In this document: positions 8,026 through 12,673 of the stretch, piece by piece | How positions within the stretch are numbered: position 1 is the first letter of the stretch | Layout: every line of letters begins with the position of its first letter | Assembly (NCBI GenBank): GCA_021847795.1 | Contig: JAJZPZ010000020.1 | Span: 1-32,713 of the forward strand | Source of the DNA: Nitrospirota bacterium | Lineage (GTDB): Bacteria > Nitrospirota > Thermodesulfovibrionia > Thermodesulfovibrionales > Dissulfurispiraceae | Reading direction: 5' to 3' | DNA: 32,713 bases | Program-made: the position numbers and the translations under genes | Notes under the pieces: model-generated | The model's database searches: none | The model's input: only the letters and a program-made list of their open reading frames with translations | Told to the model about the DNA's origin: nothing

Positions 8026-9375
8026 TCGCTTAGCGGGGAAATAGACGGTGAAGGTCGAGCCTTTTCCGAATCGGCTCTGCACGTCGATTCTTCCTTGATG
8101 AGCTTCGACGAGCTCTTTGACGATGGAGAGCCCGAGGCCGAGGCCGCCTGCGTACTTCTTATAAAATCTTTCGAAGATGAAGGGCAGGTCTTCCTCTTTT
8201 ATCCCGACTCCCGTATCGGCGACCTCGATAAATACCTCTGCATTCTTACTGCCTGCTTTGATCAGGACATGTCCACCCTTTGTTGTCGCCTTTAAGGCAT
8301 TGCTGAGGAGATTAATGACAATCTGGCTCAGCCTGTCAGGGTCAACATAGATAAGCGAGCCATCATTGCATTGAAAGTCGAGGCTTATGCCTTTTTCGCT
8401 GAAGAGGATACCGAATCGCTCGGTTATGTTCTGCAGGAAAGGCTTGAGTTCCATATCCCTGGGCTTGAGAGACAGCCTGCTCGCCTCTGCATCGAAAAGG
8501 TCTTCGATGCCTTCGAGCATGCTTTTGAGCCGGTCCAACTCTGCATTTATGGATGCGAGATTCTCCTTCGTCAGGGGATGCAAGTCGTCAATCATCCCTT
8601 CGAGCTCGCTCTTCATGGCTCCCAGAGGCGTTCTGAGCTCATGGGCAACGTTGGCGAGCAGTTTTTTTCTGAGGGATTCCTGCATATCGAGGCTCCGGGC
8701 CATTGTGTTGAACGTATCCGAGAGTATCCTGATCTCGTCATTGCTTGTAACTGTCACCCTGCTTTTGAGATCGCCCTTGCCGATGGACCGCGCGGCGAGA
8801 GTGAGCTTCTTGATCGGGTCGGTCAGTTTTCTTGAGAAGACAACGCTCAACAGCAGAGCAAGACCGCCTAAAGCGAGGAGCGACAGCATGAGGAACCGAT
8901 TAGACCGTGTAATAAAAACCGGCTCCCTCCTGGGTCTCAGGAATTTGACCTCAAGCGAACCTATCTCCTGCCCTCTCAGGAATAAAGGGTAAGATATAAA
9001 CTCGCCTGTCGCCCCTGAAGCCTTGAATTGTGCAACCGCGGGAATCCTCCTTGCCATGGGCCCGGGAAGAGCAGCCAGTGCCTTTTTGGTATCAGTCATT
9101 ATGGTCCCGTTACTATCTTTTATCTTTACCTCAAGGCCGAGCATGAGGGCCCATATCATATCTTCGGTAATGACCTCATCATTCCAGCCGTCATATTTCG
9201 CATAGGTATTCTCAAGGTCGGCGATGACCCAATAGACCCTGTCCTCCTGCTCCCCTTCCAGGTATTCGCGAAAGTCCTTGATCATCAGCTCGCGCAGGAG
9301 GAGGGCTGCCGAGAGGGCTATAGCAGATACCGCAATAAGAAGGATAAGGAATTTGATCCACAGACTCTTAAGCAT
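8020..9375 (-). CDS. Membrane sensor histidine kinase (HAMP-HisKA-HATPase)
   Basis: A 451-aa sensor kinase in the inner membrane. Transmembrane helix 1 is at about 8-28, a periplasmic sensing region at 30-158 and transmembrane helix 2 at about 160-180. A HAMP domain spans 180-235. The phospho-acceptor His245 is in the H box HELRTPLG, followed by the N box (NLLSNA, around 355-360), G1 (DTGVGI, 387-392) and G2 (GLGLGL, 411-416). All catalytic motifs are intact. Its ATG overlaps the regulator's stop by 8 bp (ATGCTTAA), so the pair is co-translated. With the adjacent ZraP-like gene, a role in metal or envelope stress sensing like CpxA or ZraS is likely but not proven. Confidence 0.92.
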   Translation of the reverse strand: MLKSLWIKFLILLIAVSAIALSAALLLRELMIKDFREYLEGEQEDRVYWVIADLENTYAKYDGWNDEVITEDMIWALMLGLEVKIKDSNGTIMTDTKKALAALPGPMARRIPAVAQFKASGATGEFISYPLFLRGQEIGSLEVKFLRPRREPVFITRSNRFLMLSLLALGGLALLLSVVFSRKLTDPIKKLTLAARSIGKGDLKSRVTVTSNDEIRILSDTFNTMARSLDMQESLRKKLLANVAHELRTPLGAMKSELEGMIDDLHPLTKENLASINAELDRLKSMLEGIEDLFDAEASRLSLKPRDMELKPFLQNITERFGILFSEKGISLDFQCNDGSLIYVDPDRLSQIVINLLSNALKATTKGGHVLIKAGSKNAEVFIEVADTGVGIKEEDLPFIFERFYKKYAGGLGLGLSIVKELVEAHQGRIDVQSRFGKGSTFTVYFPAKRS

Positions 9376-10069
9376 CTTGTTTGCCTGAGAACCGGTAGCC
9401 TACACCGTAGATGGTAAGAATGATTTTGGGCTCACCGGGGTCATCCTCGATCTTTTGCCTGATATGCCGGATGTGGGCGTCGATACTCCGCTCGTATCCA
9501 TCGAATTGATAACCTAATGCCTCTTCCACGAGCTCTTTTCTTGAGAATGTCTTGCCGGGATGCGAAGCGAGGGTATAGAGGATTTTGAATTCGGTGGGCG
9601 TCAGATTGAGCGCCTGTCCTTCTCTCTTTGCCTCATACCGCTGTCCGTCGATCAGCAAGGAACCGTCATCAAAGCTCATCAGCTCTGCACTGCTCAGGTC
9701 CCTCTTTTCAGACCGTTTCAACACAGACTTTACCCGGAAGACCAATTCTCTGGGACTGAACGGTTTCACGACATAATCGTCGGCGCCGAGGGCGAACCCC
9801 GCCAGCCGCTCCTCTTCGGTCGACCGCGAGGTGAGCATGATGACCGGAAAGTCCCCGGATTCTTTCATCTTCATGAAGACTTCTTCGCCGGACATGCCGG
9901 GCAGCATCAGATCCAGTATCAGCAGGAGGGGGACCTCTTTCTCCGCAGCCTCTACGGCATCCTTGCCCCGCTCGAAATGCTTGACGCTAAAACCGGCGCT
10001 CTCAAGATAGACCTTGACCATCCTCGCCATTTTTGCATCGTCCTCTACGACAAAGATAGAGTGGAACAC
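9368..10069 (-). CDS. OmpR-family response regulator
   Basis: A 233-aa transcription regulator. The receiver domain has acidic residues Asp10/Asp11, phosphorylation site Asp53 (LILDLMLPG), Thr80 and Lys102 (VVKPF). A winged-helix Trans_reg_C DNA-binding domain spans about 130-230 (LNLTPTEFKILYTLA, SIDAHIRHIRQKI, YGVGYRF). The start is a GTG with GGGAGGA about 6 nt upstream. A perfect TATAAT (minus strand, 10107-10102) lies 33 bp above the start with a weak -35. The regulator is first in the operon with the histidine kinase; its probable binding site is the 10-bp tandem repeat at 8006-8025. Confidence 0.94.
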   Translation of the reverse strand: MFHSIFVVEDDAKMARMVKVYLESAGFSVKHFERGKDAVEAAEKEVPLLLILDLMLPGMSGEEVFMKMKESGDFPVIMLTSRSTEEERLAGFALGADDYVVKPFSPRELVFRVKSVLKRSEKRDLSSAELMSFDDGSLLIDGQRYEAKREGQALNLTPTEFKILYTLASHPGKTFSRKELVEEALGYQFDGYERSIDAHIRHIRQKIEDDPGEPKIILTIYGVGYRFSGKQDA

Positions 10070-10282
10070 CCTTATCCTCCCTTATACTACATGAACAGGA
10101 AATTATACAATCACAATATCTTACACGTAGTCGCTTGAGGTAGTCGCTGCTCTCAGCCCCTCGGCCAATACATAATGATGAATACCCCCATATACGCCTC
10201 TCCTCAAAACAGCGGAAATTCAAGAGCATCTCCTTCATTATATCAGACCCAGGTCCGGCCCGGATCAAATGCTGTGACTGAG

Positions 10283-10301
10283 AGCTGCCTTTCCGGCAGC
10301 T
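10283..10301. other. Small stem-loop in divergent intergenic region
   Basis: AGCTGCC-TTTCC-GGCAGCT is a perfect 7-bp stem with a 5-nt loop. It lies 33 bp before the His-rich protein ATG. No gene upstream on the plus strand needs a terminator here, so it may belong to that gene's leader. The rest of 10070-10334 holds only the regulator promoter and a 9-bp direct repeat (GTAGTCGCT at 10127 and 10140). Confidence 0.3.
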
Positions 10302-10334
10302 TGCTTCGATTTTTCATTTATGTAATAATTTCAC

Positions 10335-10775
10335 ATGGCGCTACAGTCTAAACAACTGCGGATTCTCCTGCCTTCCCTCCTTTTCTGCGTGCTCATTGTT
10401 TTTGTGTTTTCACCTGTTGCCCATCTTTATGCCCATGACAGCTCCCACAATCAGGGTAGCTTCAATAACAAGGGCTTATTCGTCTCACATATTCACCATG
10501 ATGCCGAAGCGAAGCGGTTTTCGGTAATCCCCGAAAACGATACCAGCCGTCACGATCACCATTCACGTCTTACTCTGGAAACAGGGTAGGCAGGCAGACA
10601 GGCGGACTGCTGCATCCAGCATGCAACGCCGCCTGATGCGATGGCCGCAGCGAACCGGCTTTCTTTACCTTTAAATGAATTGCCTGGATTCACTATTCCT
10701 CAAGGTAATAGTGTTCATCCCCCAAGCAGTTTCACTTCATTGTTCTCAGGCCTCTCTCCTCCCTGCAGCATCTAA
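10335..10775 (+). pseudogene. His-rich exported protein split by one in-frame TAG
   Basis: The first 84 codons encode a signal peptide (LRILLPSLLFCVLIVFVF, cleavage near YAHD) and a His-rich segment (SHIHHDAE, RHDHHSR), then TAG at 10587-10589. The same frame continues open for 61 codons to TAA at 10773. That part reads like normal protein (ADCCIQHATPPDA, LPLNELPGFTIPQG, LSPPCSI). The simplest explanation is a single nonsense change such as CAG to TAG in a 145-aa gene. TAG is an ordinary stop elsewhere here (gatB, rluD, the decaheme cytochrome), so recoding is unlikely. His and CC residues suggest metal binding, and the gene is divergent from the metal-type two-component system. No ribosome site is visible. 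Readthrough or sequence error are alternatives. Confidence 0.55.
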
Positions 10776-10830
10776 GGCAGCCCGTATTTTCAGCAGATTA
10801 CGATAAACTTGCCTTTAAAGGGGAGGACAT

Positions 10831-11067
10831 ATGTTCAAGATCATTGTCGGCTTTTTATTCTTTGCATCTGCGTTGCCGCTTGGAGGCGCCTCGGCAGCCG
10901 ATAGGATTCTCTATGAAAAGAATTCCCTGTATCAATACATCGTAGTAAGCGAAGACAATAAGACCGGACTCAGATGCATCCATAACAATGAAAAGCGCCT
11001 CAAGCAGGGCGGGATGGTTCTTAGGTTTTCCGGGGACGGTTTATTTAATTCGTTACTGAGAAGCTAA
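10831..11067 (+). CDS. Truncated spermidine-synthase-like exported protein
   Basis: A 78-aa frame with an excellent ribosome site (AAAGGGGAGG, 5-6 nt before the ATG) and a signal peptide (residues 1-22, ending ASAA). Residues 24-62 (ADRILYEKNSLYQYIVVSED, then LRCIHNNEKRLKQGGM) match the N-terminal beta-domain of spermidine synthase-like proteins, where E-x-x-S-x-YQxI leads to a Q-x-x-M turn. The catalytic Rossmann domain that should follow is missing. After GGM the sequence becomes unrelated (VLRFSGDGLFNSLL) and stops, and no reading frame downstream restores it. It is therefore a gene remnant or a small protein derived from one. No activity is expected. Confidence 0.55.
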   Translation: MFKIIVGFLFFASALPLGGASAADRILYEKNSLYQYIVVSEDNKTGLRCIHNNEKRLKQGGMVLRFSGDGLFNSLLRS

Positions 11068-11204
11068 ATTCACAAGTCCAAGCCCCCAATCATCACACCC
11101 AAATGTGATAGAATAGCGTTACGTAAAATTTAAGTGATCCACTCGCCGGATTATTCTTAAGGATTATAACCAGTGCCCTACCCTATGCCTGAGGCGCATA
11201 TTGC

Positions 11205-12167
11205 ATGACAGAGGAAACTACACTTTCATCCAGGATCTCAACGAAGTTTGCCGGCAGGAGTCTTATGGATTTTCTCACCCTGCGCTTCAAGTATCAGACC
11301 GGCGACGAATGGAAGCGGATGATCGGGCGCGGGAAGGTGACGGTCAACGGGAAGGCGACAACGCCTGATCATCTCCTGAAAAAGAACGATATTGTAGCGT
11401 ATTCGAATGTCCGCAGCGAACCCCCTGTAGATGGAAATATACAGATTATGCATGAAGAAGAAACCTTTCTTGTTGCAAATAAACCGGGCAACCTGCCGTC
11501 GCATTCCGACGGCACTTACATCAGGAATACTTTAATTTGCCTGTTGCGCGAACGCATGGCCGGCAAGGGCTTCCAGGGCACCCTCCACCTGGCGCATCGC
11601 CTGGACCGTGAAACAAGCGGGATAATCGTTGCTGCAAAAGCAAAAACCGCACACCGGGCGCTCTTGCAGCAATTTGAAACCGGAACAGTAGAAAAAGAGT
11701 ATATTGCGATAGTCCGCGGAGCAATCAGCAACGATTCCTTTGAGGTCAGGGGGTTTTTAGTGCCTGACCGTGACAGCTGCATCTCGATAAAAAAGAAAGT
11801 CGTGTGCGATGACGGCGCAGACGCCAAGTACTCCGCCACTGTTTTTGAGGTGATGGAACGCTTCGCATCATGCACGATGGTGAGGTGCAGGCCAGTCACC
11901 GGCAGGACAAACCAGATCAGGATTCACCTGGCACATGCCGGCCATCCATTGCTGGGCGACAAGTTATATGGCAGGACCGACGATCAATTCCTTGCGTTTG
12001 TTAAGAATGTCAGGGCCGGACATTACGACCTGCTTCCCTGGCAGGAAACTCCGAGGCACCTTCTGCATGCCTCACGCCTCATCATAAATCATCCGCTGTC
12101 CGGGGAGCAGCTTGTATTCAATGCGCCCGTACCGGAAGACATGAGTTCATTCATCCGGCACAGCTGA
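11205..12167 (+). CDS. RluA-family RNA pseudouridine synthase
   Basis: A 320-aa pseudouridine synthase, the second in the window. An S4-like region covers residues 14-66. The catalytic motif HRLDRETSG contains Asp134, and later motifs TGRTNQIRIHLAHAGHPLLGD and HLLHASRL are intact. It is divergent from the protein at 3692-4621 (HRLDRETSG rather than HRLDKDTSG, and a longer insert near 260-285), so it probably targets a different RNA site; which one cannot be told. The start ATG has a modest GAGG about 9 nt upstream. It appears monocistronic. Confidence 0.88.
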   Translation: MTEETTLSSRISTKFAGRSLMDFLTLRFKYQTGDEWKRMIGRGKVTVNGKATTPDHLLKKNDIVAYSNVRSEPPVDGNIQIMHEEETFLVANKPGNLPSHSDGTYIRNTLICLLRERMAGKGFQGTLHLAHRLDRETSGIIVAAKAKTAHRALLQQFETGTVEKEYIAIVRGAISNDSFEVRGFLVPDRDSCISIKKKVVCDDGADAKYSATVFEVMERFASCTMVRCRPVTGRTNQIRIHLAHAGHPLLGDKLYGRTDDQFLAFVKNVRAGHYDLLPWQETPRHLLHASRLIINHPLSGEQLVFNAPVPEDMSSFIRHS

Positions 12168-12214
12168 CCGCCTGAATTAAATGCACACCCCTCCACCGGA
12201 GGAGATACAGAATT

Positions 12215-12258
12215 GCTGCTGATCTGTTGATAGATGTTGCTCCCTGAGCAAATCAGCG
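12215..12258. other. Nested stem-loop after the RluA-family gene
   Basis: An outer pair GCTGAT / ATCAGC encloses a perfect hairpin TTGCTC-CCT-GAGCAA. It lies between the convergent RluA-family gene and the 46-aa peptide gene. No T tract follows in either direction. It may be a weak shared transcript end. Confidence 0.3.
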
Positions 12259-12336
12259 GGTTGCCCGGCGGGGCACTGGACTCAGGGGAATCTCACTTCA
12301 TATCGGCATAATGCGCACAAAGGCAGGACAGGCCGG

Positions 12337-12477
12337 CTAATCATCAAAATAAAAATTGCCGAGAAACAAGGATATGGTCATCAGCAGCAGCATCAGAATA
12401 TACAGGAACCTGTTCATGATATCGTTTGCCGTATCAACAAGCTGGACCAGCAATTGGGGAACCATATCTATAGTCAT
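12337..12477 (-). CDS. 46-aa single-span membrane peptide
   Basis: An unlisted small gene. From ATG 12477 it encodes 46 residues: an N-terminal amphipathic stretch (MTIDMVPQLLVQLVDTANDI), then a hydrophobic helix at about 24-40 (FLYILMLLLMTISLFLG) and a short acidic tail (NFYFDD), ending at TAG. The ribosome site AAAGGAG is 8-9 nt upstream, as strong as any in the window. Codon use looks like its neighbours. Small membrane peptides like this can be toxins, regulators of membrane proteins or stress peptides. No family is recognised and no partner lies beside it on the strand. Confidence 0.65.
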   Translation of the reverse strand: MTIDMVPQLLVQLVDTANDIMNRFLYILMLLLMTISLFLGNFYFDD

Positions 12478-12673
12478 TTACAACACTCCTTTCCCTGAAT
12501 ACAGCCGGGAATGAAACCGGCAACGACATCTCTTGAACAATGCTGCACAAGGCAATCGCAAGCTCTGTCCAATGCCGGCTACCACCTGAAAATAGCCTAT
12601 CAGCAGGCCTTTTTGCAAGTTTCCAAAATGACAGGAGGGACCAGGGGCCCGGGCCCGGAAAGCAAGATTTTGC

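What the first reader, a model, noticed from the sequence alone, without database searches (positions are those of the whole stretch)
10335..10775. One amber codon splits an otherwise continuous exported protein
The frame stays open and protein-like for 61 codons past TAG at 10587, ending at a TAA. The first half has the signal peptide and His clusters, the second a CC pair and a Pro-rich conserved-looking tail. A single C-to-T change (CAG to TAG) explains it.
Basis: seen in the sequence. Interest (0 to 1): 0.5.

Follow-up and report, generated by a model that had tools for sequence, protein, structure and literature searches.

The report
Broken leader-protein gene with SGLSPP tail
A stop codon really does cut a small exported, histidine-rich protein in two; its relatives look like a so far undescribed family of leader proteins that may regulate the gene behind them by pausing the ribosome, and this copy has lost the tail thought to do that.

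Summary
In detail: window 10335-10775 is one frame, 84 codons, TAG, 61 codons, TAA. The frame after the TAG is not chance. With a family model built without the window, the pieces before and after the TAG are the two best of 620 frames in the window (21.4 bits each; 0 of 5000 shuffles of the second piece reach that). Intact relatives run unbroken to the same end, the motif SGLSPP, which here lies behind the TAG.

The copy looks decayed, not recoded. TAG ends 5 of 20 long ORFs in the window, no pyrrolysine synthetase passes its cut-off, the next gene, an exported spermidine-synthase-like enzyme, is cut after about 57 recognisable codons, and a second copy elsewhere in the genome is cut by a deletion.

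The wider result is the family: 68 distinct SGLSPP-type proteins (window piece included), no fitting Pfam or NCBIfam model, 63 of 68 just upstream of a same-strand gene. Plan and context resemble CutF/CruR-type metal-sensing leaders, but stalling is inferred, and a test for ribosome-binding-site masking was negative.

The parts
10335..10586 (+). First part of the broken leader gene (84 codons): N-terminal hydrophobic helix and His-rich part
   Evidence: 21.4 bits to the family model built without the window
10356..10418 (+). N-terminal hydrophobic segment (signal or membrane helix) ending in the conserved proline
   Evidence: Sequence; alignment A2; the corresponding segment of relative L020 is the only confident helix of its model. 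Coordinates approximate
10419..10568 (+). His-rich stretch, possible metal site
   Evidence: Sequence; His-rich in 30 of 68 members. Metal binding is inferred
10587..10589 (+). In-frame amber codon TAG
   Evidence: absent from the relatives
10590..10775 (+). Second part of the leader gene (61 codons and TAA)
   Evidence: 21.4 bits to the family model built without the window; 0 of 5000 shuffles reach that
10746..10763 (+). Codons of the conserved tail SGLSPP
10776..10830 (+). 55-base gap to the next gene, with a GGGGAGG ribosome-binding-site-like stretch
   Evidence: gaps of 43-82 bases in the 14 relatives listed there
10831..11067 (+). Truncated remnant of an exported spermidine-synthase-like gene
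   Evidence: 57 residues at 68% identity to the synthase of L039, nothing after; intact synthase has PF01564

Best explanation
The locus is a decayed copy of a two-gene module: a small exported His-rich leader protein followed by an exported spermidine-synthase-like enzyme. A nonsense (amber) mutation cuts the leader before its conserved tail, and the second gene has lost everything after its first 60 or so codons. Intact members most likely act as nascent-chain regulators: the N-terminal helix sends the chain to the membrane, the His-rich (metal-type) or KKxRA (other-type) middle part senses a condition, and the C-terminal SGLSPP pauses the ribosome shortly before the next gene, so that the pause sets the expression of that gene. 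Shown here: homology across the TAG, truncation of the partner, the family, its motif and its gene order. Inferred: export, metal binding, stalling, regulation, and loss of function of this copy. I put about 0.85 on the decayed-copy part and about 0.5 on arrest as the mechanism of intact members; the figure below is for the whole.
For: Both halves match the family model. Relatives are unbroken and end in the same tail. Partner gene truncated; second copy in the genome cut by a deletion. TAG is an ordinary stop here and in relatives L019 and L028. Family plan: one confident N-terminal helix, no confident fold after it, tail nearly invariant and two residues from the end in 43 of 68, synonymous codons vary in the tail, nearest downstream ORF on the same strand in 63 of 68, downstream genes of many kinds. 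DNA pattern GLSPP-x-x-stop: 109 places against 41 for the frame-shifted control in 175 genomes. Known leaders with this plan regulate metal genes (PMC9973294, PMC9426467).
Against: No stalling or expression data. Folding of 54 loci: a pause at the tail does not free the next ribosome-binding site more than shuffled upstream sequence does (p=0.43). No RNA family match. The tail lacks the Arg of RAPP-type motifs. Rows of the 68 were selected for the tail, so its invariance is partly by construction (one full-length model hit, L093, has SGLSPL). The genome is a draft in 273 contigs, so assembly error is possible.
Confidence: 0.55

Rival explanations
1. The TAG and/or the truncated neighbour are errors of a draft (metagenome-type) assembly, and the gene in the living organism is intact.
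For: 273 contigs, 2.9% contamination; another gene of this genome, behind leader L096, also seems to lack an internal piece, and L040 is a deletion join.
Against: Three separate lesions of different kinds (a point change and two losses) fall in the same two modules.
Confidence: 0.15
2. The TAG is read through (suppression or recoding), so that the full-length protein is made.
For: Frame and family tail are preserved behind the TAG, with no further stop or frameshift.
Against: TAG ends 5 of 20 long ORFs in the window; no PylS over its cut-off, the one weak match being of the kind seen in 13 of 14 control genomes; relatives have no TAG there; the partner gene is broken too. A suppressor tRNA in the rest of the genome was not searched for.
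Confidence: 0.05
3. Intact members are exported metal-binding or envelope proteins that act as finished proteins; the SGLSPP end is a docking or sorting signal, not an arrest motif.
For: Exported, His-rich in 30 of 68; SD-masking test negative.
Against: The tail is shared by His-rich and KKxRA-type members in front of unrelated genes, is not preceded by a confident fold or second helix, and tolerates up to 20 residues after it, as a pause site would and an end signal would not.
Confidence: 0.3
4. The 84-codon first half is itself a functional shortened protein, selected to have lost its tail.
For: The second copy in the same genome (L040) is also cut just behind its His-rich part.
Against: Both copies also lack part of the partner gene; among the model hits the tail-less ones are broken or weak.
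Confidence: 0.08

Closest known systems
CutF and CutF-like proteins (Rhodobacter capsulatus cutFOG; PMC9973294: abstract, sections 10-12 and passages read)
   Same: Short exported protein, metal-binding residues, Pro-containing motif within the last 15 residues, same-strand gene close behind; downstream genes include OEP/CzcC and, for the His-only clusters 14 and 17, HupE/UreJ, both seen here.
   Different: CutF has CxxxC and a stem-loop over the next ribosome-binding site; here no such masking was found in general. Most published members are from Pseudomonadota and Bacteroidota; Nitrospirota and spermidine synthase are not mentioned in the main text. About half of the present family is not His-rich and precedes non-metal genes.
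CruR / DUF2946 (Bordetella pertussis bp2923; PMC9426467: abstract and passages read)
   Same: Exported leader of about 145 residues, metal-sensing, Pro-Pro motif three residues before the end, heads an operon.
   Different: No DUF2946 match, no RAPP, no conserved CxxC.
RAPP-type and other arrest peptides upstream of sec/yidC and other genes (PMC10987492, PMC12992588: passages and one section read)
   Same: N-terminal targeting signal, variable middle, short conserved Pro-containing motif close to the C-terminus, diverse downstream genes.
   Different: Those motifs are RAPP, RGPP, HAPP, QAPP, LPPP and the like; 'LSPP' does not occur in either main text, and 'GLSPP' was found in only five papers of the library, by their titles on eukaryotic or AAV subjects.

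Membership tests
CutF-like proteins (rules as given in PMC9973294, section 10) | Fewer than 150 residues | tested here: met
   Read-through window protein 146 residues; the 14 relatives have 129-148 residues as annotated there and; some non-metal members may be longer, starts not being certain
[quoted passage not shown]
   67 of 68 family members; in the window only behind the TAG
CutF-like proteins (rules as given in PMC9973294, section 10) | N-terminal signal peptide | tested here: inconclusive
   Hydrophobic N-terminal stretch and a confident helix 12-33 in L020; no signal-peptide predictor was available
[quoted passage not shown]
   63 of 68 as nearest ORF; in the window the downstream gene is a remnant
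CutF-like proteins (rules as given in PMC9973294, section 10) | Cys and/or His metal-binding motif | tested here: inconclusive
   His-rich in the window and in 30 of 68; absent in the KKxRA type, 25 of 68; binding not testable
CutF-like proteins (rules as given in PMC9973294, section 10) | Homology to a published CutF-like cluster | not tested
   Published clusters are in supplements, which could not be opened
CutF mechanism | mRNA structure over the next ribosome-binding site opened by the pause | tested here: not met
   54 loci: gain in openness no larger than with shuffled upstream sequence, p=0.43
CruR / DUF2946 | Match to the DUF2946 profile with CxxC and RAPP | tested here: not met
   No DUF2946 match in 19 members (E<=0.1) or 10 further members (E<=0.01); no RAPP, no shared CxxC
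Translation arrest peptides | Ribosome stalling at the motif | not testable with these tools
   Needs in vitro translation, toeprinting or ribosome profiling
Pyrrolysine or other TAG recoding | PylS gene in the genome | tested here: not met
   One match of 28.5 bits, cut-off 178

The most novel reading that the evidence does not exclude
SGLSPP marks a new class of translation-arrest leader proteins in Nitrospirota: one tail and one membrane-targeting head combined with interchangeable sensor middles (His-rich for metal genes; KKxRA-type for envelope, glycosyltransferase and other genes), several copies per genome, set before at least eight unrelated kinds of gene. The window shows such a leader losing its arrest tail by an amber codon while its target gene is also being lost.
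Probability: 0.45. Interest if true: 0.7.

Novelty: new variant of a known kind. Interest (0 to 1): 0.45.

Why it matters
By itself a nonsense-broken small gene is ordinary. Following it exposed a family without a Pfam or NCBIfam model in a little-studied phylum, with the hallmarks of nascent-chain regulators but with a tail motif not found in the arrest-peptide papers searched here. If the tail arrests ribosomes, it adds a non-RAPP arrest motif and extends leader-based sensing from metals to other gene classes; the broken copies would then be natural tail-loss mutants.

Tried and rejected
Chance open frame after the TAG: rejected. Homologues ending at the TAG: rejected. Recoding by pyrrolysine: no support. 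Known family: no Pfam or NCBIfam match worth naming for the leader (the best, DUF3810, E=0.002, is below its cut-off). Relatives on plasmids: none. First scan of genome contigs with the single protein: 70 pattern matches, none confirmed. Masking of the ribosome-binding site by RNA structure: negative. Known RNA families in 13 loci: none. The broken region elsewhere in the same genome at DNA level: only weak short matches. The syntenic place in relatives: the neighbouring pseudouridine synthase gene was found in only 2 of 31 genomes of the family at E<=1e-60, the window's own included; the other locus (L072) shares only that gene with window 9000-12500, so an unbroken or empty site could not be compared.

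In one search I kept 68 of 77 distinct model hits (E<=1), those with G-x-S/T-PP within 30 residues of the end; the nine dropped are the first halves of the window gene (L001) and of L141, the deleted copy L040, L093 (SGLSPL), and five weak matches (L067, L062, L031, second frames of L066 and L010). Only 30 of the 109 pattern places were fetched and looked at. In one search the five members not counted as same-strand (L023, L096, L105, L111, L117) had an antisense ORF chosen by the script; a same-strand ORF follows each of them too, but I left the count at 63.

Full report
Observation. The frame described is there: ATG 10335, TAG 10587-10589, TAA 10773-10775. The genome is a draft of 273 contigs and 3.54 Mb, 97.8% complete; the window is one contig. 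Its relatives with named records are Nitrospirota, among them Thermodesulfovibrionales: the contig of G017 has the same length as, and the same synthase as, L127, a Thermodesulfovibrionales record. That the window's genome belongs there too is inferred.

Is the second half real? A search of 60 genomes (the window's own among them) with the read-through protein gave, besides the window, one weak full-length match (E=0.007, 30%), unbroken, in G017. It lies a few dozen bases before an exported spermidine-synthase-like gene, and the window's next ORF, 10831-11067, begins like that synthase. Using the synthase as a guide I read the DNA upstream of the 30 best synthase loci in the order: 15 of 30 carry an unbroken small protein directly upstream, all with the same plan and all ending in GLSPP plus two residues (L035 was missed by the filter and seen). 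In the alignment of 14 of these with the window and the broken own-genome copy, 14 of the 15 rows that reach the tail have SGLSPP and one has FGLSPP (L029), while the stretch before it is variable; the window has the tail behind its TAG. A model from 18 rows without the window gives 21.4 bits to each half and ranks them first and second of 620 frames; no shuffle of 5000 comes near. Some of those 18 rows had been found with a model that contained the window row. So the TAG splits a real gene.

State of the locus. The second gene keeps 57 residues at 68% identity to the synthase of L039 and then ends in unrelated sequence. The same genome has a second leader (contig 16, L040): it is cut right behind its His-rich part and joined to the C-terminal half of a synthase, with a cation-efflux gene further downstream. 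Two more members in this genome, L096 and L097, are unbroken. TAG ends 5 of 20 long ORFs that I picked in the window, no PylS passes its cut-off, and relatives L019 and L028 use TAG as their normal stop just behind the motif. I therefore read the locus as decayed, not recoded. The ancestral codon cannot be told, because relatives do not share a residue there. Assembly error remains possible.

The family. A model search found the leader in 28 of 176 genomes of the order (E<=0.01; these include a few partial or doubtful matches) and, with a wider model, in 47 of 395 genomes of the phylum sample (E<=0.001), up to four matches per genome, four being in the window's own. Among 80 named synthase loci from GTDB genomes, 10 carry an unbroken leader upstream and one (L141) a frameshifted one; a twelfth pattern hit (L159) looks like chance. 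I collected 68 distinct proteins or pieces with the tail, the window's second half and L141 included. Residues after PP: two in 43 of 68, up to 20 in one. In 66 full-length rows the S, G, S, P, P of the tail and a proline behind the N-terminal helix stand out, with a weaker RA in the middle; the rows were selected for the tail, so part of this is by construction. The middle comes in two kinds that do not overlap: 30 with five or more His, 25 with a KKxRA-type motif, 13 neither (the thresholds are mine). No Pfam or NCBIfam family describes them. The AlphaFold model of L020 shows one confident helix, residues 12-33, and no confident fold after it (mean pLDDT 59.8).

Context. The nearest downstream ORF is on the same strand in 63 of 68. 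Of ten chosen downstream proteins, eight have Pfam matches, of seven kinds: outer membrane efflux protein (twice), OmpA, glycosyl transferase 2, sigma-70, CBS, HupE/UreJ and multihaem cytochrome; two have none. The synthase is an eighth kind. An independent count by DNA pattern, GLSPP plus two codons plus stop, gives 109 places in 175 genomes, the frame-shifted control 41 (rows counted by hand). Of the 30 loci fetched, 9 lie in frames of 120 or more codons, all nine with an N-terminal hydrophobic stretch; two of these, L225 and L226, were not in the model set; the other 21 lie in frames of fewer than 100 codons and look like chance.

Mechanism. A targeting signal, a variable sensor-like part, a short Pro-Pro tail near the stop and a same-strand gene soon after are the marks used to define CutF-like leaders (PMC9973294; abstract, sections 10-12 and passages) and are shared by CruR (PMC9426467; abstract and passages) and by RAPP-type arrest peptides (PMC10987492 passages, PMC12992588 passages and one section). 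In CutF and CruR copper acts on the nascent chain and changes the fate of the downstream gene. I think the same kind of action is most likely here, with about even odds for true ribosome arrest at SGLSPP. Against it: no stalling data, and folding of 54 loci gives no sign that a pause would free the next ribosome-binding site (mean gain 0.081 against 0.066 with shuffled upstream sequence, p=0.43). A Rho-type mechanism as in CruR was not tested. Codons of the tail vary synonymously, so selection acts on the amino acids.

Novelty. The window copy is an ordinary nonsense-broken gene. The family is a new variant of a known kind: by the CutF rules the metal-type members would qualify, but the SGLSPP tail and the non-metal members are not mentioned in the texts I could search. 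Published supplements were not available, so part of the metal type may already be listed there.

Noticed in passing
L040 2217-2941 (own genome, contig 16): A second His-rich leader, joined by a deletion to the C-terminal half of a synthase; downstream a membrane gene and a cation-efflux (CDF-type) gene, with a TolC/CzcC-like frame on the other strand.
   Followed up: partly
L096 (own genome, contig 148): The glycosyltransferase-like gene behind this leader is about 85-90 residues shorter inside than its relatives behind L070 or L063, an in-frame gap; real loss or assembly error.
   Followed up: no
L141 3158-3440; L065 (G171 contig 96): Other damaged leaders: L141 seems split by a frameshift, and in L065 only a 29-codon frame with the tail remains before the synthase.
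   Followed up: partly
L101 about 1033 (G020 contig 216): Another member whose match contains a TAG, here near the N-terminal helix; it may be broken or may start later.
   Followed up: no
L093 (G372 contig 56): The one full-length member with a changed tail, SGLSPL in place of SGLSPP.
   Followed up: no
L098 (G042 contig 13): Two leaders back to back on opposite strands, one before a HupE/UreJ gene, the other before the synthase.
   Followed up: partly
window 10282-10302: Terminator-like hairpin followed by T-rich sequence 33 bases before the leader's start codon (two such sites found, 1.1 expected in shuffles).
   Followed up: no
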